Assembly: GCA_937891465.1 (NCBI GenBank)
Contig: CALAHF010000139.1
Coordinates: 1-64,000, forward strand
Length of the DNA stretch: 64,000 bases
Origin: an uncultured Verrucomicrobiales bacterium
Lineage (GTDB): Bacteria; Verrucomicrobiota; Verrucomicrobiia; Verrucomicrobiales; DEV007
Direction of reading: 5' to 3'
In this document: positions 1-61,493 of the stretch, one piece after another
Numbering within the stretch: the first letter of the stretch is position 1
Layout of the letters: every line of letters begins with the position of its first letter
Notes under the pieces: model-generated
Told to the model about the DNA's origin: nothing
What the model saw: only the letters and a program-made list of their open reading frames with translations
The model's database searches: none
Position numbers and translations under genes: made by a program

Positions 1-2602
1 ACATTCGTTCAACGGGAGCATCGGGCGAATCAGCTTTCGCGCGTTCAGCGATGAGCTTGGCCTGCTCGACAACAAAATCAGAATTCATCAAATTCAAAGC
101 CTGAAGCGGGGTTGTGGAGACCGGACGCTTGGCTCTCACTTGTCCACAATCTGGAAAATCAAAGGCTGTGAAAATTTTGTCATCCACCCGACGCATTCGC
201 TCCTGATAAATCATCCGACGCCAGGTTTCCGGTCCGTAGTTATTAACGACCTCCCATTGTGCATAGGTTTTTTTCACGTTGTGAATCCGAAAGCTTCGCC
301 CACCGATTTCGGGACTTAGCTTTCCGCTGGCTTGTAAAATTCCATCACGAATCACTTCGGCAGAAACCCGCTGAGGGGGGAAACGCCACAACAGCAAAGA
401 TCCAGCATCTGCGTTTAGCTTCGCCTCGTCAGGAAGGCTCGAACGTCGAAACGCATCCGTTAGAACAATCTGGCGAATCATTTTCTTCATCGACCACTCG
501 TTTTTCACAAAATCGACCGCCAGCCAATCCAGCAATTCGGGATGAGTCGGCAGAGCTCCGGCTTTTCCAAAATCACTCGGAGTCGGAACAATGCCCGTTC
601 CAAAAATGTGATGCCAAATACGGTTCACCATCACCCGGGCTGTAAGCGGATTTTCTTCGTTCACTACCCACTCGGCGAATTTCGCACGGCGCTGCGGATC
701 AGGTGTCGCGGAGGTCAAACCCAGATCGCCATTCATGATCGCAAACCCCGCAGGCATGACCTCGTCACGAGGGTTCTCCGGGCTACCGCGGTGCAACACT
801 TGCGTTACACTCGGCTTCTTCGTGAAGGCCCCCACAAAGCTGTGCCGCGGCCCCTCTTCACTCAGCAAGGCGATATTTTCCTGCAGTTGTGCATGGGCTT
901 TTTTGGCAACGTCGCTCTTTTGCAATAGCGCTTTCGCCCATCCAGTTTTGCCCACTTCCTTCCAACTGCCATCGGCTTGGAGCGCGGAAATTTTAAAGCC
1001 CGGAGCGAAGAACTTGGACTTCTTTTCGAGGTAATCGGTTTCGAAGAAATACTCACGATTACTGCTGAACCTGAACTTATTCACTTCGTGCGATTCTTCG
1101 AAATGCACCTCAACCCACGGCAATTCCTTGCTGCCCTTCGGCACACTCGTTCGCCACGCCATTGTCCCGAAAACTCCATCATTCGCTGTCGAGACAGGGT
1201 TGCCGGCTTTCGTTAGTTTATCATCGGCCACCAGTTTGGTTCCCGAAGAGGCGAGCGCGAGATTCTCCGAATAGTCTTTGGGGCCATAAACCTGCAACTC
1301 GTCGATTCCAAAGTTTGGCTTCGCGAATTCAATCCGCAGTGCCTTGGTTTCAGTTTTGGGGAAATGAAATTCTGCGTAACCGCCCCAGTCTTCCATCCAT
1401 TGCCCCACTTCCGCTCGGAGGCTCGAGCGGTCTTTAAACATTTTTGATCGCAACTCTTTTGCTCGTTGCTGAAGCGGATGGTCTTCGCCGTATTCCGGCC
1501 AGCGCCCACCGAATTCAACGCCTTGGAAGACTGCAGTGAGTGAGTAGTAATCCTGAATCGAAATCGGGTCGAATTTGTGATTGTGACAACGCGCGCAACT
1601 CACCGTCATTCCGAGCATCGACGCTCCAACGGTTTGCATAATTTCATCCATCCGGTCGGCTCTCGCCTGACGAATCGCACTGGGCTCGCGCCCCACTGTC
1701 GCAGCGGGGACATGAGGTCCAGCCACAAGGAATCCTGTCGCTTCACCCACTCCAAACTGATCTCCAGCAAGCTGCTCACGCACAAACTGATGGTAGGGAA
1801 TGTCTTCGTTGAACGCGCGAATAACGTAGTCGCGATAGACCCATGCATTTTTTCGATACAAATTTGCTTCCGACCCATTGGTCTCTGCCCACCGAATCAC
1901 ATCCAACCAATGCTGCGCCCAACGTTCACCAAAATGCTCCGAAGCCAGCAGCTCATCGACCAATGCCGCATAGGCTCCATCGGCGTCCTTTCCAAAATCG
2001 GAGGCAAATTTTTCAACGCGCTCAGGTTTAGGCGGAAGTCCCGTAAGCGTGATTGAGGCGCGTTGAATCAGAGAGCGAGCATTTGCTTGAGGGTTCGGCT
2101 CGATCTTAGTAGCCGCGAGTTTTTCCAACAAAAATCCATCGATCGGGCTCGACGCATCCGTTTTCGGTTCGCCCGGTTTTTTGATTGGAAGAAAAGACCA
2201 GTGATCGATTTTCGTTTCAATCACCGCATCCATTTGTCCCGGCCAATTGGCACCTTCTTCGATCCATTTACTGATCAAGGCCACTTCGCCTTTCGTGAGC
2301 GGATCCCCCTTTGGCGGCATCAACATGTCAGGATCACTGCCATCAATCACCTCGATGAGATAGCTTTTCAGAGGTTCACCCGGAACGAGCGACGCAATCC
2401 CAGAATCACCACCGCTCATCATAATCGGCCGCTGATCAACACGGAACTCTGATTTCTGTTTTTCAGGACCATGGCAATCGATGCAATTCTCCTGCAAAAT
2501 CGGTAGGATTTCTTTTTCAAAATCGACGGCCTGAATCGCAATCGGAAAAAAGGCGAAGCTCAGACAAAAGAGGAATGTGGACTGAAATGGGAGTTTCATC
2601 AT
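1..2602 (-). CDS. PSCyt1-DUF1549-DUF1553 protein, C-terminus cut by window edge
   Basis: This is a large exported protein of the planctomycete-cytochrome type; the family's biochemical role is not established. Translation of the minus strand from tandem ATGs at 2602 and 2599 gives a signal peptide (about residues 3-24), then a PSCyt1 haem-like motif CIDCH followed by GPEKQKSEFRVD. A DUF1549 region follows, including CARCHNHKFDP, and then a DUF1553 region with NPLTARVMVNRIWHHIFG and RAKRPVSTTPLQALNLMN. About 867 codons lie inside the window and the frame is still open at base 1, so only the last tens of residues are probably missing. The paralogues at 11260 and 45955 share the same architecture. 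The family assignment is strong; a role in polysaccharide degradation is inference from typical neighbours. Confidence 0.9.
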   Translation of the reverse strand, partial: MMKLPFQSTFLFCLSFAFFPIAIQAVDFEKEILPILQENCIDCHGPEKQKSEFRVDQRPIMMSGGDSGIASLVPGEPLKSYLIEVIDGSDPDMLMPPKGDPLTKGEVALISKWIEEGANWPGQMDAVIETKIDHWSFLPIKKPGEPKTDASSPIDGFLLEKLAATKIEPNPQANARSLIQRASITLTGLPPKPERVEKFASDFGKDADGAYAALVDELLASEHFGERWAQHWLDVIRWAETNGSEANLYRKNAWVYRDYVIRAFNEDIPYHQFVREQLAGDQFGVGEATGFLVAGPHVPAATVGREPSAIRQARADRMDEIMQTVGASMLGMTVSCARCHNHKFDPISIQDYYSLTAVFQGVEFGGRWPEYGEDHPLQQRAKELRSKMFKDRSSLRAEVGQWMEDWGGYAEFHFPKTETKALRIEFAKPNFGIDELQVYGPKDYSENLALASSGTKLVADDKLTKAGNPVSTANDGVFGTMAWRTSVPKGSKELPWVEVHFEESHEVNKFRFSSNREYFFETDYLEKKSKFFAPGFKISALQADGSWKEVGKTGWAKALLQKSDVAKKAHAQLQENIALLSEEGPRHSFVGAFTKKPSVTQVLHRGSPENPRDEVMPAGFAIMNGDLGLTSATPDPQRRAKFAEWVVNEENPLTARVMVNRIWHHIFGTGIVPTPSDFGKAGALPTHPELLDWLAVDFVKNEWSMKKMIRQIVLTDAFRRSSLPDEAKLNADAGSLLLWRFPPQRVSAEVIRDGILQASGKLSPEIGGRSFRIHNVKKTYAQWEVVNNYGPETWRRMIYQERMRRVDDKIFTAFDFPDCGQVRAKRPVSTTPLQALNLMNSDFVVEQAKLIAERAKADSPDAPVERM

Positions 2603-13818: not shown

Positions 13819-16262
13819 TGAAATTGTTTTTCCCCGCGTTTTTGCTCAGCTTCGCGACGGCAAATGCGCAGCTGCCGAACAGCGATTTCCAAATGATCTC
13901 TCCGGCTTTCGCGAAAGCGGGCTCAACCGTTGAAGTGACTGTTTCTGGAACCAATTTGGAGGAGCTGACATCGCTTCGGTTCAATGATGTGAGGATCAAA
14001 GGTGAGCCGGTTATGCTGCCGAAGGATGAAATTTATCCTGACGGGAAACAAGTCGCGAACAAGTTCACCGTAAAAATTCCACCGGGCGTGAAACCGGGAA
14101 TCGTCGAAGCGCGGACGCAGGGATATTTCGGATTGTCGACCGCTCGCCCATTTATGATTTTACCGGCAGACGCCGCGGAAATTCCCGAAGAAGGCGATCA
14201 TTCTACGCAGGATAAAGCCATGCCGCTCGCGATCGAAACCGGCGTGTCAGGCACGTTGGATAGTCGCGGAACCGATTGGTATAAAGTCGCTGCAAAAAAA
14301 GGCGAGCAACTCATGATTCAAGTCTGGGCCGAACGATTGGATTCAAAAGCCGACGCGCAACTGTCTATCTTCAATAGCTCAGGGCAAGAGCTTGAAACCA
14401 ATCGCCTCCACTTCGTTCGCGATCCGTTCATCGATTTTACGGCACCAGAGGACGGAGACTATTTCATCGCCGTTTCCGAAATTTTATATCGGGGTGGCAG
14501 CCAGTATTTTTACCGACTAAAAGTCTCGAAAGTTCCGATCATCGATTTCGTTTGGCCGCCGGCCGGTGTCCCCGGAACCAAAACAAAATTCACGATCTTT
14601 GGAAGAAATTTACCGGGCGGCAGCCTCGGTGAAGGCGTCGAACTGGATGGAAAGGCTCTCGAGTCTGTCGAAGTAGAAATCGATGTTCCACCCATAGCGA
14701 CCGTTTCAAAAAGGTTTTCGGCAAGCACACCCCGGCAAGCGACCTTGCCCGGATTTGAACACCAGATCGGAAATTCCAATGCCCTCAAGATTGGCTTTGC
14801 AACGGCGCCGGTGATTTTTGAAGTTCGGGATTCTATTTCACAGACCGTTCAGGCGCCTTGTGAAATTGCGGCAAAATTTGATGTAAAGGGAGACAGCGAC
14901 ACCTTTCGGTTTTCGGCAAAAAAGGACACCACCTATTTCATCGAATCGATTTCAGATCGAATGAAGGTGAACTCCGACACCGTCCTGATTCTTCGGAAAG
15001 TCGGCGATGACAAAATCGTCGCTGAAAACGACGACACCCCATCGTTTTTCAGCGCCGACCGGTTTGATTCGACCAATCTCGACACGACGGATGCAATGCT
15101 GAATTTCACAGCCGATGCTGATAGCGAGTATGAAGTAACAGTGATCAATCAAGCGGGCGGCGGAAGCGCGGCCCACCTCTACCGACTCGCCATTCGCGAG
15201 GCCCAGCACGACTTTCAACTCTTCACCACGACGGAACGAACCATTACCGCCACCAATGGCCGCGCAGGATTTCCCGCCGCGCCCATAATCCGAAAAAACG
15301 GAACGATCGTCTATCGCGTGGTCGCTCCCCGACAAGACGGATTCGAAGGTGACATTGTAGTTAGAGCCAGTGGATTACCCGAGGGCGTGTCCGCTCCGCA
15401 ACTAACTTTGAGCGGCGATTCCACCACTGGATTTTTGGTCATAAAAGCCGCCGCGAATGCCGCCGCCTGGTCGGGCCCGATAACCATTTCAGGCAGGGCA
15501 ACAATTGGCGAAAATAACATCCGACGAGTCGCACAAAATGCATCGCTTGTTTGGGGAGTAATTTTTTCCGACAGCTTCCGGGTCCGCTCGAGGCTCGATT
15601 TAGAAATCGTGCTTTCGGTGATTTCTGAAGAAAGCACGCCCACCACACTTACTTCGATCGATCCCAATAAAGTCTGGGAAGTAGAATTGAATCAGAAGCT
15701 CGAAATTCCAATCAAGACGACTGAATTCAATGCATTACGAAAAGGGAACCTCACCGTGCAGCCTCACGGTTTTCCGGGAATGCAAAAGAGTCCTCCAACT
15801 GTGGCCATTGCTGAAACCGCAACCGACGGAAAATTGGTCATCGATTTTAAGCCAAACGGAAATTTCGCTGCCAAACCCGGAGATTTTCAATTCGCGCTTC
15901 AGGGCACCGGACTCGCAAAATATCAGCATAATCCTAAATTAGGACTCGCTGCAACTAAAGAACACAAACGGCTGGAAGCGCTCGAAAAAATAATCGTTGA
16001 ACGGATTCAAGTAGGGAACAAGCGAGTCATCGAGCTTGAGCGAAGCAGTGCGACCGAGGTCGAACTTGCAGCAGCAAAAAAAGCCCTCGAAGCTGATAAG
16101 GCTCTCCTTAAACGGGTAACTGTAGCCAGAGGTGCGGCCGATACCGCCGCAAAAGCAGCAAGGGCAAAAGCAGTCGCGAAGGACACCAAATTCGTGACCT
16201 ATTCCACACCGGTTTCCGTGAAAGTGAATCCCGTTCCGGAAAAAGCACCCGCGAAAAAATAA
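13797..16262 (+). CDS. Exported PPC-domain protein
   Basis: This protein has 821 residues counted from ATG 13797, which gives a clean signal peptide (VKLFFPAFLLSFATANAQ). An open frame to 13698 overlaps the upstream gene and is not needed. An IPT/Big-like N-terminal domain (ISPAFAKAGSTVEVTVSGTN) is followed by two pre-peptidase C-terminal (PPC) type domains. The first contains GVSGTLDSRGTDWYKVAAKKGEQ; the second contains KFDVKGDSDTFRFSAKKDTTYFIE. The last 110 residues are a charged, Ala/Lys-rich coiled coil. No enzymatic domain is visible. It is probably cotranscribed with the DUF1549/DUF1553 gene. Its N-terminal residues come from a 43-nt repeat copy. Confidence 0.88.
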   Translation: MNQQGWIVKLFFPAFLLSFATANAQLPNSDFQMISPAFAKAGSTVEVTVSGTNLEELTSLRFNDVRIKGEPVMLPKDEIYPDGKQVANKFTVKIPPGVKPGIVEARTQGYFGLSTARPFMILPADAAEIPEEGDHSTQDKAMPLAIETGVSGTLDSRGTDWYKVAAKKGEQLMIQVWAERLDSKADAQLSIFNSSGQELETNRLHFVRDPFIDFTAPEDGDYFIAVSEILYRGGSQYFYRLKVSKVPIIDFVWPPAGVPGTKTKFTIFGRNLPGGSLGEGVELDGKALESVEVEIDVPPIATVSKRFSASTPRQATLPGFEHQIGNSNALKIGFATAPVIFEVRDSISQTVQAPCEIAAKFDVKGDSDTFRFSAKKDTTYFIESISDRMKVNSDTVLILRKVGDDKIVAENDDTPSFFSADRFDSTNLDTTDAMLNFTADADSEYEVTVINQAGGGSAAHLYRLAIREAQHDFQLFTTTERTITATNGRAGFPAAPIIRKNGTIVYRVVAPRQDGFEGDIVVRASGLPEGVSAPQLTLSGDSTTGFLVIKAAANAAAWSGPITISGRATIGENNIRRVAQNASLVWGVIFSDSFRVRSRLDLEIVLSVISEESTPTTLTSIDPNKVWEVELNQKLEIPIKTTEFNALRKGNLTVQPHGFPGMQKSPPTVAIAETATDGKLVIDFKPNGNFAAKPGDFQFALQGTGLAKYQHNPKLGLAATKEHKRLEALEKIIVERIQVGNKRVIELERSSATEVELAAAKKALEADKALLKRVTVARGAADTAAKAARAKAVAKDTKFVTYSTPVSVKVNPVPEKAPAKK

Positions 16263-16283
16263 ATCCCTGAAAAAACAACGTTT

Positions 16284-16634
16284 TCAGCTGCGAAACCGCT
16301 TTTTCAACTCCAGCAGAGCGACCATGAGCAATCGGTTGGGTGCCCGATTTTCCAAATACGCATCATCGGCTTCACGACGCGCCACATCCAACAGCGTGGT
16401 CGTATCGATCCAATCAGGGGTATCGAGTATTTGTTCACGAATAGAGTGATCCGCAATCTTCGGCTCATTGGCCGGATTGGCCGTAATATTGAAAGAAACT
16501 GATGGCTCACGAAAACGAACGTTATCCGTGCTGGTTTCTCCATGCACCAGCCAATTTGCTTCCACCGACAGAAATTCTGCCAGGCGCGTCAAATTCTCCC
16601 CCTTAGGAATCGTACCGGAAAACCAACGGCTCAC
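16284..16634 (-). CDS. XRE-type HTH regulator without an obvious start codon
   Basis: From GTG 16634 the product is 116 residues beginning SRWFSGTIPKGENLTRLAEFLSV, which is only the second half of a Cro/C1 helix-turn-helix. The same frame stays open upstream to 16742 and encodes the missing half (LYRAWKESGISKGEIAGSLG, then VAPGSVSRWF), yet contains no ATG, GTG or TTG before the TAA at 16743-16745. So either a rare start (ATT, ACG) is used, or the start has been lost. The C-terminal 60 residues (from about DTPDWIDTTTLLDVARREAD) match nothing I recognise. It is divergent from another small HTH gene, like a phage or plasmid switch. Confidence 0.65.
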   Translation of the reverse strand: MSRWFSGTIPKGENLTRLAEFLSVEANWLVHGETSTDNVRFREPSVSFNITANPANEPKIADHSIREQILDTPDWIDTTTLLDVARREADDAYLENRAPNRLLMVALLELKKRFRS

Positions 16635-16734
16635 AGACCCGGGAGCAACCCCAAGCGAACCCGCAATTTCGCCTTTCGAAATCCCCGATTCTTTCCAAGC
16701 TCGATAAAGTCTGTCAGTAAAATCTTTTACTTGC

Positions 16735-16760
16735 GTTAAGTTTTAACTGTAGTGAACACT
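16735..16760. promoter_or_regulatory. Two adjacent short palindromes between divergent HTH genes
   Basis: GTTAAGTTTTAAC (16735-16747, arms GTTAA/TTAAC) and AGTGAACACT (16751-16760) are adjacent dyads in the region separating the two HTH genes. They are plausible operators. The first overlaps the 5' end of the open frame on the minus strand. Confidence 0.4.
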
Positions 16761-16811
16761 TAAAGATACCATCCCCGTTAAAAAGTAACCTTTACAAGGG
16801 GATGATCATAT

Positions 16812-17027
16812 ATGTCCCTTCAAAGTCACAAAACACAACTAGTCACTCAAAGAGCATTTAAATTGCGTAAACTGTTAAAAAGACATGGAGTTACTCAAAG
16901 TGAAATCGCCACGTCGCTGGGAGTATCGCGCGTCCACCTCAATATGGTTCTAAATTCCCGAAGAGTGAGTGAGCCACTTCTCAATCGTATTGAAACCTTG
17001 ATTGTCCCCTCCCAGCCTTCTGCATAA
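16812..17027 (+). CDS. Small Cro/C1-type HTH protein
   Basis: This 71-residue protein is almost entirely one helix-turn-helix: RKLLKRHGVTQSEIATSLG followed by VSRVHLNMVLNSRR. ATG at 16812 has AAGGGG about ten bases upstream. It is divergent from the larger HTH gene at 16284, so the pair resembles a repressor/Cro arrangement. It could be a degraded prophage or island control region; no phage structural gene is nearby. Its target is unknown. Confidence 0.75.
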   Translation: MSLQSHKTQLVTQRAFKLRKLLKRHGVTQSEIATSLGVSRVHLNMVLNSRRVSEPLLNRIETLIVPSQPSA

Positions 17028-56608: not shown

Positions 56609-57187
56609 ATGAGGAAAGCAAACGCTAAAGATCGAATCCTCACAACCGCAGGCCAGCTCTTCAACGAGCGAGGTTACTCTGAGGTTGGGATTAATGAGAT
56701 CATCAAAACCGCCGAAACGGCGAAGGCGAGTTTTTATCAGCATTTTGCATCAAAAGAAGCGCTCTGCGAGGCTTGGCTCGACGCGATTCACGACCGATCC
56801 GAAAAAGGACGCGAAAATATCTTAGCTTCCTCTGGAGATCCTTGTGAGAAAATCGCGAACTACTTTAAGACCCTCGAAGATTATCTAGTCGAAAGTAACT
56901 TTCGTGGCTGCCCTTTTTCAAACACCGCAACGGTGACAGGAGAAAGCTGCTGCGGAATTCGTAAACGAGTTGAAGACCACAAAGTTTCAATTCGTGAATT
57001 TTTTCAGACATTAGTGGCTCAGTTTGTCGCTTCTAAAGAAAGAGCCCATGAAATCGGAGACCGCTTATTTATCATCTACTCAGGAGCTGGCAGCGAAACT
57101 CAAAACGTAAGGGAGATGTGGCCGATTCAGACAGCTCGCCGAGCAGCGGTAGAGATCTGCCAAGCTGAAAGAAAGACGAAGGAGTAA
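56609..57187 (+). CDS. TetR/AcrR-family transcriptional regulator
   Basis: This 192-residue repressor has an N-terminal HTH with RILTTAGQLFNERGYSEVGIN, then EIIKTAETAKASFYQHFASKEALCEAWL, the standard TetR pattern. The ligand domain has FRGCPFSNTATVTGESCCGIR with three cysteines, a pattern seen in TetR regulators of the YxaF/LmrA-like branch. ATG 56609 is preferred over TTG 56585, which would overlap the palindrome. Likely targets are its own promoter and the sigma-factor gene downstream, where related palindromes occur. Confidence 0.9.
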   Translation: MRKANAKDRILTTAGQLFNERGYSEVGINEIIKTAETAKASFYQHFASKEALCEAWLDAIHDRSEKGRENILASSGDPCEKIANYFKTLEDYLVESNFRGCPFSNTATVTGESCCGIRKRVEDHKVSIREFFQTLVAQFVASKERAHEIGDRLFIIYSGAGSETQNVREMWPIQTARRAAVEICQAERKTKE

Positions 57188-57283: not shown

Positions 57284-57907
57284 ATGAAGAACAACACAGT
57301 ATCCAATAAGCCGAAGCACACGCTAGATCCCGAAAACTGGATCTCGCAGTATCACGAGTATCTCGTCCGTTTTGCTTTGCAGCGTATTTCCGATTACGGC
57401 ACAGCCGAAGATCTTGTCCAGGACGCTTTCCTCGCAGGCTGGAATGGCCGTAAAAACTTCAGAGGCGATTGCACTGAACGCACGTGGTTGACCGGAATTC
57501 TTCGCAACAAAGTGATCGATCATTATCGTAAGACTGGTCGTCGCCCTTCGGTTTTGACCACCGATCTCGACGGCGCATTCGACAATGAAAACGGTGCGAA
57601 ATCAACGTGGCTCGATCGGCGGGCCGATGAAAGAACCGACCTTCAGCCTGTGGCTTCAGCTGAACGCCACGAGTTTATGACGGATCTTTCTGATGCAGTT
57701 GATCAACTTCCCGAAGCGATGGGCCGAGCTTTCCGGATGCGCGAAATGGAAGGTTACTCCACCGACGAAATCATAAATTTGCTGAATATTTCAAAAGGCA
57801 ACTTGTGGGTTTTGATCCATCGAGCCAAGCAAGCACTCAGTGAAGAACTCGCCGGCAACTGGCTCGGAAACTCCTCATTCGGCGATCCGATGCAAGTGGC
57901 TGCGTAA
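57284..57907 (+). CDS. ECF-family RNA polymerase sigma factor
   Basis: This 207-residue sigma-70 family protein has region 2 with YLVRFALQRISDYGTAEDLV, then QDAFLAGWNGRKNFRGDCTERTWLTGILRNKVIDHYRK. Region 4 contains LPEAMGRAFRMREMEGYSTDEIINLLNIS and KGNLWVLIHRAKQAL. ATG 57284 follows AAGGAACAAGTG, a good ribosome binding site. No anti-sigma gene is adjacent. It is upstream of the VIT-vWA/exosortase genes and may direct them; it is perhaps itself under the TetR protein. Confidence 0.9.
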   Translation: MKNNTVSNKPKHTLDPENWISQYHEYLVRFALQRISDYGTAEDLVQDAFLAGWNGRKNFRGDCTERTWLTGILRNKVIDHYRKTGRRPSVLTTDLDGAFDNENGAKSTWLDRRADERTDLQPVASAERHEFMTDLSDAVDQLPEAMGRAFRMREMEGYSTDEIINLLNISKGNLWVLIHRAKQALSEELAGNWLGNSSFGDPMQVAA

Positions 57908-57931
57908 TTTAACACCGACATTTCACCCAAA

Positions 57932-57974
57932 CGATCAGACCGGGTTGGTTCGATGAATCAATCCTGTCTTTTCG
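57932..57974. repeat. 43-nt palindromic repeat, copy 12
   Basis: This copy has left arm CGATCAGACCGGGT, centre TGGTTCGATGAATCA and right arm ATCCTGTCTTTTCG. It lies between the sigma-factor gene and the VIT-vWA gene and is among the more diverged copies. Confidence 0.85.
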
Positions 57975-58041
57975 TATTCACGGATCGAATTCACAAAGGT
58001 TTCACATTCGGTTCAACTCCACTTCACATTCACCACGCAGG

Positions 58042-60090
58042 ATGGTGAGTATTAAGAAACAGCTGATCACATTCCTGACACTAATTGTTGCCGTCACCAC
58101 CCACGCCAATTCTAGAGGCGGAAACGGCACTGGCGAAACCGGCGCCTTCGATCGCGAAAGCAAAACGCAGTCGCCCTATTTCGTCATTATCGAGGGCGGC
58201 GAAAATCAAACCGAAGGCAAATCCGAAAAGCTGCCCCTCAAATCAACCGACGTGGAAGTGAACATTTCAGGTGTGATCGCAGATGTCGAAATCAGGCAGC
58301 TCTACCAAAACACCGGGAAGAAGAAACTTGAATGTATCTACGTTTTTCCCAGCTCAACTCGAGCGGCTGTCCACGGCATGGAATTCACGATCGGTGGTCG
58401 CAAGGTGATTGCGAAGATTGAAAAGAAGTAAGTCGCCAAGGCGAACTACGAAAAGGCAAAAACGGAGAACAAAACCGCGGCGCTCCTCGAGCAAAAGCAA
58501 CCCAACGTTTTTCAAATGAGCGTTGGTCATATTCTTCCCGGTGACGAAATCGAAGTGACCCTTCGCTACACCGAGCACCTTTTAGCTACGGATAAAATCT
58601 ACGAGTTCGATTTCCCAACGGTAGTTGGGCCACGTTTTTCAAACGACAAGAACACAAGCGGTCCAGCTGATCAATGGGTCGCCAATCCGTATCTCACCAA
58701 AGACACTCCAAGCCCATCGACCTTCAATGTCACCGCGACGGTGAATGCAGGACTTCCGCTGAATTACATCGCCTGCGACACGTATCCGGTGAAGGTTGAT
58801 TTCGTTTCTGACTCCACTGCAAAGCTCAGCCTTCAACCGGGATCCGAAGCGACCGACGACCGCGACTTCATTCTCAAATACCGCCTCACCGGCGACAAAA
58901 TCATTACGGGGCTTTTGCTTCACGAAGACGAGAAACTCGGCGAAAACTTCTTTCTCCTCACCGTCCAACCGCCTGAGAAACCAAAGCTCACTGACATTCC
59001 TGATCGCGATTACGTTTTCGTTGTCGATGTGTCAGGATCGATGAACGGATTTCCACTCGACACGTCAAAGGAGCTTCTAGAAAATTTGATAGGCTCGCTT
59101 CGTCCGACTGATCATTTCAATATTCTCTTTTTCGCCGGAGGAAATAAAGTCCTTTCGCCAACTCCGCTTCCCGCAACTCAGGCAAACTTCCGCAAGGCAC
59201 TGCGGATGCTTGATGGCCAGTCCGGAAACGGCGCGACGCAACTGTTGCCTGCGTTAAAAGAAGCGTTCGCACTTCCAAAATCAGAGGGGACTAGCCGTTC
59301 GATGGTCGTGGTTAGCGATGGCTACGTTTCTTTCGAACGCGATGCATTTGGTCTCATTCGAGACAATCTGAACGACGCCAACGTTTTTACATTCGGGATT
59401 GGATCGAGCGTGAATCCCTTTTTGATTGAAAGCATGGCCCGAGCCGGACAGGGCGAGCCATTTATCGTCACCACCAAAAAACACGCCAAAGACGAAGCTA
59501 CCCGCCTTCGGAAACTCCTCACCTCGCCCGTTCTCACAGATGTTGAAATCACGTTCAATGATGAGTTCGAAGCCTACGACATCGAGCCACGAACCTATCC
59601 GGACGTCTTCGCTGATCGTCCCGTCGTGGTCTTTGGGAAATACCGGGGCAAGCCAACGGGCGCGATTGAAGTCGCCGGAATTTCCGGAAAAGAAAAAATA
59701 AAGCTTTCAGACACCATCTCCGCTCCCAACTCTGAAGAAGACAATGCTGCACTCCCCTATCTGTGAGCCGGAAATCGCATCGCGACGCTTTCAGACACCA
59801 TCTCAACAGATCAAAACCGGGATGAAATCGCAGAGGTTACCAACCTCGGGCTCGGATACAATTTGCTGACGCGTTACACAGCCTTCATCGCAATCGACGA
59901 CATGGTTCGCAAGGCCGATGGACTCGAAAGCGAGAAAGTAAAACAACCGCTTCCTCTACCAAAGAACGTTCCCAACTCCGCCGTCGGAGGAGGGTCGACC
60001 CCGGAACCAACCATGCCGCTGCTGTTGCTCGTTGGCGGATTGTTTCTGTTATTTCAGCGCAGCCGCCGTGAAGTCGCCGACTCCGTTTAA
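58042..60090 (+). pseudogene. VIT-vWA protein with PEP-CTERM signal, two in-frame stops
   Basis: One frame of 682 codons encodes a signal peptide (KKQLITFLTLIVAVTTHA), a VIT domain (VEVNISGVIADVEIRQLYQN), a vWA domain with MIDAS motif DVSGSMNG and a C-terminal sorting signal: PEP in STPEPTMP, hydrophobic LLLLVGGLFLLF and basic RSRREV. TAA at 58429 interrupts IEKK/VAKANYEKAKTENKTAALLEQ. TGA at 59764 interrupts LPYL/AGNRIATL, where homologues usually have Trp, so TGG to TGA is likely. No frameshift is present. The exosortase gene follows by 20 bases, so this is its dedicated substrate. It is broken unless the stops are read through. Confidence 0.82.
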
Positions 60091-60110
60091 TCTGATTCTT
60101 TCAGTCGACG

Positions 60111-61493
60111 ATGAATCCCATTACCGAAATCACCGCAGCTGATCGAGCCTTGCTTCAAGATACTCATCAGCCGCGTGTTCGGGTTCATCCGAGTGTGATC
60201 GCTGCAATCGCGATCACTGCTTTTTATCCGGTTTGGCAATGGTTTCTCCTTCGGCTGAACGACGGATCGCACGAATCCTGGGGACTGGTCGCGTTGCTGA
60301 CCGCAGCTATTTTCATCGGAAAGAAAATTCAGCGAAGTGGAAGGTTGGCCCTTGGATGGAATGCCGTCTCAATTTTTTCAGCCGCACTCTACGTCCTGGG
60401 GTTCAACGTGTTAAATCCAATGATTCAGGCAGCGGTCGCCATCGTGTTTCTTTGCGCATTTTTCCGAATCGACCGCATCGCACCCGGTATCTGTGGACTG
60501 CTTCTCATCTCATTGCCAGTTATCGCCAGCGCCCAATTCTATCTCGGCTATCCCTTGCGACTGATCACCGCAGTCAGCATGGAATTTCTTTTGAATTTGT
60601 GTTCGATCGACGGCGACATCTAGCGTCACGGCACTGTCTTGTGGTGGCAAAACGCGCCCATCGGTGTGGATCCTCCCTGCTCGGGTATCCGGATGCTGTG
60701 GGCGGGATTCTTTCTCCACTTTGTGCTCGCATCGTTTCATCGGCATTCATGGCGCGCCCTGATTTTTCTGACGCCGCTCGCTGGAATCGCCATCATCGTC
60801 GCGAACATCGCGCGCGGATTTTTACTCTTCTTCAAAGAGACCGAGATCGTATTGCTCCCTGATTGGACCCATGTTGGAATTGGAGTTGTGCTGTTTGCTG
60901 CGCTCGCACTCGGATGGTCAAAGCTCAGCGCACGATTCCAAAAAGTAGCAAACGACAACCCGATCCCCTATCAAAAACAAAAGTATGTTTCTTTCTCGCT
61001 GATTCTCGCAGCGATAGCAATTTCCCCACTCGCAATTTCTTCCTCGACTGAGCAGAGCCCGACAAACACCACCGCAATTGAATTTCCTGAAATCTTCGAA
61101 AACGAGCATCTTATTCCCATCCCACTCAGTGAAACGGAGCAACGATTTGCGAGCGCTTTTCCCGGAGAGATTGGTGTTTTCAAAACGACGACTGGAACGA
61201 GAATTATCCTTCGCCACGTTGAGAAACCGACTCGGAAGCTCCATTCCTCCGCAGACTGCCTCCGTGCGTCAGGATACCATTTGAAAAATCATTTTTCTGA
61301 AACCTTCAACGGCTGGAAGCATTGGAAAGCAACTCATCCTGATTGGGGAACGTGGCAAGTTCGTGAACAGATTTCTGAAATTCAATCCGCAGAAAACTGG
61401 TCGGACATTTCCAGTTGGTTTTGGGCGGCATCATTCAAGCAAACCAAAGGCCCCTGGCTTGCCGTCACCGTGATGGAACCCGTTTACGATTGA
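60111..61493 (+). pseudogene. Exosortase with EpsI-like C-terminal domain, one in-frame TAG
   Basis: One frame of 460 codons encodes about eight membrane helices and a C-terminal EpsI-like domain. The active-site Cys is in GVDPPCSGIRMLWAG, with Arg in VANIARGFLLFF and His in PDWTHVGIGVVL, the Cys-Arg-His set of exosortases. The C-terminal domain has TRKLHSSADCLRASGYHL. TAG at 60621-60623 splits it between SIDGDI and RHGTVLWWQ, a conserved place just before the active site. The downstream piece alone lacks the first half of the membrane domain. It would process the PEP-CTERM tail of the preceding VIT-vWA protein. The final codons fall within repeat copy 13. Confidence 0.82.

What the first reader, a model, noticed from the sequence alone, without database searches (positions are those of the whole stretch)
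57284..61493. Exosortase and its PEP-CTERM VIT-vWA partner carry three stops, one of each type
The substrate gene has TAA (58429) and TGA (59764); the exosortase has TAG (60621). There is no frameshift, all three breaks are in conserved stretches and both proteins remain complete on either side, including the Cys-Arg-His residues and the PEP sorting tail. Either a dedicated sorting system is at an early stage of loss, or its production depends on readthrough. A similar VIT-protein/exosortase pairing is known for the XrtN system; this pair in Verrucomicrobiota, headed by TetR and an ECF sigma factor, deserves description.
Basis: partly seen in the sequence, partly recalled or inferred. Interest (0 to 1): 0.7.

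Follow-up and report, generated by a model that had tools for sequence, protein, structure and literature searches.

The report
Decaying exosortase and its surface-protein partner
A known two-gene module that sorts one large surface protein has been broken by recent stop mutations in this verrucomicrobial genome, and a second, parallel module there has lost its surface protein in the same way; this looks like ordinary gene loss rather than a new way of reading stop codons.

Summary
The VIT-vWA gene with a PEP-CTERM tail (58042-60091) has TAA at 58429 and TGA at 59764. The exosortase (60111-61493) has TAG at 60621. There is no frameshift.

The best reading is recent pseudogenisation, not readthrough. 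Eleven full-length copies in related genera are intact. None of about 150 sulfatase domains in the same genome contains a stop. No usable suppressor tRNA or PylS was found. The three stops are of three different types.

The genome has no other exosortase. A second PEP-CTERM gene, on C32, also has a stop and a frame break.

Both VIT-vWA sorting cassettes therefore lost their substrate through nonsense mutations.

The pair is not new as a type. A 2011 paper (PMC3237569) showed this family with GlyGly-CTERM, PEP-CTERM (Verrucomicrobium spinosum) and LPXTG tails. Relatives support a dedicated exosortase/substrate pair. The exosortase is closest to XrtQ but below that cut-off. TetR and ECF sigma are not conserved neighbours.

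One loose end: the four C202 stops come with less missense decay than expected.

The parts
58042..60091 (+). VIT-vWA protein gene with N-terminal signal region and C-terminal PEP-CTERM tail; pseudogene with two in-frame stops
   Evidence: translation; VIT, VWA and TIGR02595 matches; 11 full-length intact homologues
58429..58431 (+). in-frame TAA inside the VIT domain
   Evidence: VIT profile continues on both sides
59764..59766 (+). in-frame TGA at a Trp invariant in 11 relatives
59995..60069 (+). PEP-CTERM sorting signal
   Evidence: TIGR02595 18.7 bits (cut-off 16); PF07589 15.2 bits, below cut-off 20.7
60111..61493 (+). exosortase with C-terminal periplasmic-type extension; closest NCBIfam model XrtQ, below its cut-off; pseudogene with one in-frame stop
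60621..60623 (+). in-frame TAG between the N-terminal membrane helices and the conserved CSGIR stretch
57284..57907 (+). ECF sigma factor upstream; intact, but not found beside other copies of the module
56609..57187 (+). TetR-type regulator; neighbour only

Best explanation
This is a recently inactivated dedicated sorting cassette. In its intact form the secreted VIT-vWA protein carries a PEP-CTERM tail, and the exosortase encoded next door cleaves and transfers that tail so the protein is anchored at the cell surface. This function is inferred from the known family and not tested here. In this lineage both genes have picked up nonsense mutations and are no longer made full length. The genome keeps no other exosortase, another PEP-CTERM gene is broken as well, and the parallel GlyGly-CTERM VIT-vWA gene is broken by four stops while its rhombosortase is still open. 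The whole class of surface-anchored VIT-vWA protein is therefore being lost. Shown: the stops, the intact relatives, the absence of a second exosortase in this 96%-complete assembly, and the parallel decay. Inferred: loss of product, recency, and a common cause.
For: Stops in frame with domains continuing across them. Eleven full-length copies in relatives are intact; only G027 is degenerate, with stops and a frame break. The only exosortase in the genome is the broken one. The C32 PEP-CTERM gene has a TAG plus a frame break. The C202 VIT gene has four stops and an adjacent rhombosortase, TIGR03902 89.1 against 84. No stop in about 150 sulfatase domains. A frame-aware survey of 1.63 Mb finds a low background of strong nonsense and frameshift candidates. 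Conserved-site deviations in the VIT gene are 9 of 130 against 0-5 in most relatives, consistent with some decay.
Against: No frameshift in three genes that carry seven stops. On C202 the missense excess over G029 is only 1-10, where about 89 (90% range 30-203) would be expected to accompany four stops. The assembly is fragmented and no reads are available, so a consensus error or mixed-strain effect at a base cannot be excluded one by one.
Confidence: 0.88

Rival explanations
1. Stop readthrough or recoding: the organism suppresses stops in these surface proteins, so full-length products are still made.
For: Seven stops in three genes with no frameshift; little missense excess on C202. One degenerate tRNA-like element with an apparent CUA anticodon at C199:247-313.
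Against: All three stop types occur, with unrelated contexts. No PylS match over cut-off. The tRNA-like has a 3-nt D loop and a mismatched anticodon stem, scores 30.7 against 29, has no full-length match in 115 genomes searched (only T-arm similarity to ordinary tRNAs), and would read only TAG. About 150 sulfatase domains have no internal stop. Other broken genes also carry frame breaks.
Confidence: 0.03
2. Selected, coordinated shutdown: losing surface VIT-vWA proteins was advantageous, for example against phage or predation or after a change of lifestyle, so both cassettes were hit repeatedly and recently.
For: Both VIT genes of the genome are broken, with 2 and 4 stops plus one in the exosortase, against a low background of broken genes. 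On C202 the stops outnumber expectation from missense. The VIT locus decayed independently in G027.
Against: Simple relaxed constraint on one shared function explains joint loss equally well. Small counts. No population data.
Confidence: 0.2
3. Sequencing, assembly or consensus artefact in a metagenome-assembled genome.
For: The assembly has 229 contigs and its reads are not available here.
Against: Errors would scatter. About 150 sulfatase domains (roughly 45,000 codons) have none, whereas stops cluster in functionally linked genes on two contigs.
Confidence: 0.05

Closest known systems
VIT-vWA ('vault protein') family with interchangeable sorting tails, PMC3237569 (2011)
   Same: Same domain family; the paper shows GlyGly-CTERM, PEP-CTERM (Verrucomicrobium spinosum exosortase) and LPXTG (class GN sortase) versions.
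   Different: Here one genome carries both the exosortase and the rhombosortase version, and the substrate of each is nonsense-broken.
Marine proteobacterial sortase target TIGR03788 with class GN sortase
   Same: Best NCBIfam match of the protein along its length; intact relatives score about 420 bits.
   Different: Below the equivalog cut-off of 551.65; the tail is PEP-CTERM rather than LPXTG and the enzyme is an exosortase.
Exosortase Q, XrtQ (NF012182)
   Same: Best exosortase model for this enzyme and for its intact relatives, 145-196 bits.
   Different: All below the cut-off of 270; many relatives have a C-terminal extension, or a separate neighbouring ORF, matching the C-terminal part of XrtT.
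XrtN / VIT protein system
   Same: An exosortase paired with a VIT-domain substrate (from memory, not tested).
   Different: XrtN scores only 27.7 bits here and 32-53 in intact relatives, against a cut-off of 200.
Rhombosortase / GlyGly-CTERM (TIGR03902)
   Same: The C202 enzyme passes the rhombosortase cut-off and its neighbour ends in a Gly-rich tail, TM segment and basic end.
   Different: The substrate has four internal stops.

Membership tests
PEP-CTERM / exosortase dedicated pair | Substrate with PEP motif, TM segment and basic end | tested here: met
   TIGR02595 18.7 bits over cut-off 16
PEP-CTERM / exosortase dedicated pair | Adjacent transmembrane exosortase with Cys, Arg and His | tested here: met
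   PF09721 69.9 bits across the stop; CSGIR, NIARG and WTHVG stretches aligned with relatives
PEP-CTERM / exosortase dedicated pair | Single target per enzyme | tested here: met
   In relatives G029, G035 and G013, which have only this exosortase, there are 0, 0 and 1 PF07589 hits. G000 itself has two extra PEP-CTERM tails, one in a broken gene
PEP-CTERM / exosortase dedicated pair | Both genes encode complete proteins | tested here: not met
   Three in-frame stops
Exosortase Q (XrtQ) | Score above the NF012182 cut-off | tested here: not met
   The two halves give 82.7 and 61.5; intact relatives 145-196, cut-off 270
Exosortase N (XrtN) | Score above the TIGR04476 cut-off | tested here: not met
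   27.7 here and 32-53 in intact relatives, cut-off 200
Marine sortase target TIGR03788 | Equivalog score and LPXTG tail | tested here: not met
   About 420 bits in intact relatives, cut-off 551.65; tail is PEP-CTERM
Stop-codon recoding | One reassigned stop with a matching tRNA, seen genome-wide | tested here: not met
   All three stops involved; 34 ordinary tRNAs plus one degenerate tRNA-like; no stops in about 150 sulfatase domains
Rhombosortase (C202) | TIGR03902 above cut-off beside a GlyGly-CTERM protein | tested here: met
   89.1 over 84; SGGSGGGGGGAFP tail read by eye

The most novel reading that the evidence does not exclude
Surface VIT-vWA proteins in this lineage are kept behind in-frame stops of all three types and are made only by readthrough or suppression, so both sorting cassettes are conditionally silenced rather than dead.
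Probability: 0.03. Interest if true: 0.85.

Novelty: new member of a known kind. Interest (0 to 1): 0.3.

Why it matters
It gives a clear snapshot of a protein-sorting module being dismantled: enzyme, substrate and one further candidate substrate carry fresh lesions while the reading frames are otherwise largely preserved. Two biochemically unrelated sorting enzymes (exosortase and rhombosortase) served two VIT-vWA proteins in the same cell, and both substrates were hit. That suggests the VIT-vWA surface protein itself, rather than one sorting enzyme, is what the lineage no longer needs, which is testable by comparing strains. The system's biology is otherwise unknown, so natural losses are one of few clues to its function.

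Tried and rejected
General genetic-code change or widespread sequencing error: rejected, because no stop was found in about 150 sulfatase domains. Suppressor tRNA: 34 ordinary tRNAs and one poor tRNA-like element with an apparent CUA anticodon; rejected as an explanation because it could read only TAG and is structurally degenerate. Pyrrolysine: no PylS match over cut-off. ECF/TetR as part of the module: no conserved neighbours in 23 related loci, one weak distant ECF match. Natural split of the exosortase at the TAG: rejected. Some relatives encode the C-terminal domain as a separate ORF, but that boundary lies near residue 260-290 and not at residue 171. Papers on exosortase with VIT domain: none held. 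A first coding-potential scan missed the exosortase stop and one C202 stop, so survey counts are lower bounds. Some scan hits turned out to be ordinary adjacent genes in the same frame or antisense frames.

Full report
Observation. The window is part of contig C139 of a fragmented genome (5.97 Mb, 229 contigs, 95.6% complete). Gene 58042-60091 reads as a signal region, VIT domain, vWA domain and PEP-CTERM tail with two in-frame stops: TAA at 58429 and TGA at 59764. Gene 60111-61493 reads as an exosortase with one stop, TAG at 60621. Pfam and NCBIfam profiles continue in the same frame across each stop. Nothing suggests a frameshift.

Conservation around the stops. An alignment with 11 full-length relatives from other genera (about 47-54% identical) shows that the TGA falls on a Trp that is the same in all of them. 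The TAA and TAG fall on positions that vary within conserved stretches. All 11 are intact. A twelfth copy, in G027, is degenerate with several stops and a frame break. At 130 columns that are invariant in the other sequences, this protein deviates at nine, compared with 0-5 in most relatives and 10-12 in the two most divergent. This is consistent with limited recent decay.

Is it a general property of the genome? No. A search with the sulfatase family scored about 150 domains in this genome and none contains a stop. A frame-aware coding-potential survey of 1.63 Mb found a low background of strong candidates, seven nonsense and five frameshift, not all of which are confirmed genes. Followed-up examples include a P-type ATPase on C18 (stop plus frame break), a secretin on C97 (stop plus frame break, read directly) and a PEP-CTERM gene on C32 (below). 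Ordinary pseudogenes of both kinds therefore exist at low frequency.

The rest of the sorting system. The broken exosortase is the only one found. Two other PEP-CTERM tails pass the Pfam cut-off. One belongs to an open 213-residue protein on C97. The other, on C32, belongs to a gene that has a TAG and then a frame break before the tail. In relatives that carry only this type of exosortase (G029, G035, G013) there are 0, 0 and 1 PEP-CTERM hits, while genomes with additional exosortases have up to 62. This supports a dedicated enzyme/substrate pair. The same-genus genome G001 has a different, intact exosortase and four PEP-CTERM hits, but not this pair.

A second cassette. The genome's only other VIT gene lies on C202. 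It has four in-frame stops (14364 TAG, 14769 TAG, 14922 TGA, 15201 TAG), ends in a glycine-rich tail with a membrane segment and basic end, and is followed directly by an open gene that passes the rhombosortase cut-off, 89.1 against 84. Its homologues in G029 (76% over the searched C-terminal half, 75% over the full alignment), G051, G008 and G005 are intact. One genome thus carried two parallel VIT-vWA cassettes with unrelated sorting enzymes, and both substrates are nonsense-broken.

Readthrough. All three stop types occur and their contexts share nothing obvious. Of 37 tRNA matches, 34 are ordinary tRNAs. One tRNA-like element on C199 was called with a CUA anticodon. It has a 3-nt D loop and a mismatched anticodon stem, scores just above threshold, and shows only T-arm similarity to tRNAs of relatives. 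It could read only TAG. No PylS match passed its cut-off. Readthrough is therefore unlikely.

A loose end. Four stops on C202 would normally come with about 89 missense changes (90% range 30-203). The excess over G029 is only 10, 1 and 4 with three outgroups, each with an uncertainty of about 9-10 by counting statistics. There are also no frameshifts in the three stop-bearing VIT and exosortase genes. This mild excess of nonsense could be small numbers, slow evolution before the loss, or selection for inactivation. It is reported as unexplained.

What is known. A 2011 paper (PMC3237569) showed that this vault/VIT-vWA family occurs with GlyGly-CTERM, PEP-CTERM (an exosortase in Verrucomicrobium spinosum) and LPXTG tails. 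Among the 80 loci kept, nearly all copies with a PEP- or PGP-type tail have an exosortase next door; in one, L226, none was detected. The exosortase is closest to XrtQ but it and its intact relatives fall below that cut-off. It may be an unnamed subgroup. The ECF and TetR genes upstream are not conserved neighbours.

Conclusion. A known type of dedicated sorting pair caught in recent decay, with a striking parallel decay of a second VIT-vWA cassette. Interest is modest. Function is inferred from the families and was not tested.

Noticed in passing
L050 (G000:C202) 14181-16211: Second VIT-vWA gene of the genome, GlyGly-CTERM tail, four in-frame stops (14364, 14769, 14922, 15201), followed by an intact rhombosortase at 16212-16844.
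   Followed up: yes
L085 641-1596 (G000:C32 near 6717): Matrixin-like PEP-CTERM gene with an in-frame TAG at 1268 and a frame break before its PEP-CTERM tail.
   Followed up: partly
L308 (G000:C199) 247-313, minus strand: Degenerate tRNA-like element called by ARAGORN as having a CUA anticodon; perfect acceptor and T arms, 3-nt D loop, poor anticodon stem.
   Followed up: partly
L084 2121-3069 minus (G000:C97): Secretin-like gene with an in-frame TGA and a frame break, beside an open PEP-CTERM protein gene.
   Followed up: partly
L095 19424 minus (G000:C18): P-type ATPase gene with an in-frame TAG and later loss of frame.
   Followed up: partly
L058 6499-7912, L216 8635-9947, L177 3383-4701: In several relatives the exosortase core and its C-terminal domain are two overlapping ORFs, whereas in others they are fused.
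   Followed up: partly
L309 (G000:C119) 1-71: 3' fragment of a tRNA-Leu-like sequence at a contig end, with what looks like an integrase-type reading frame just inside: probable integration site.
   Followed up: no
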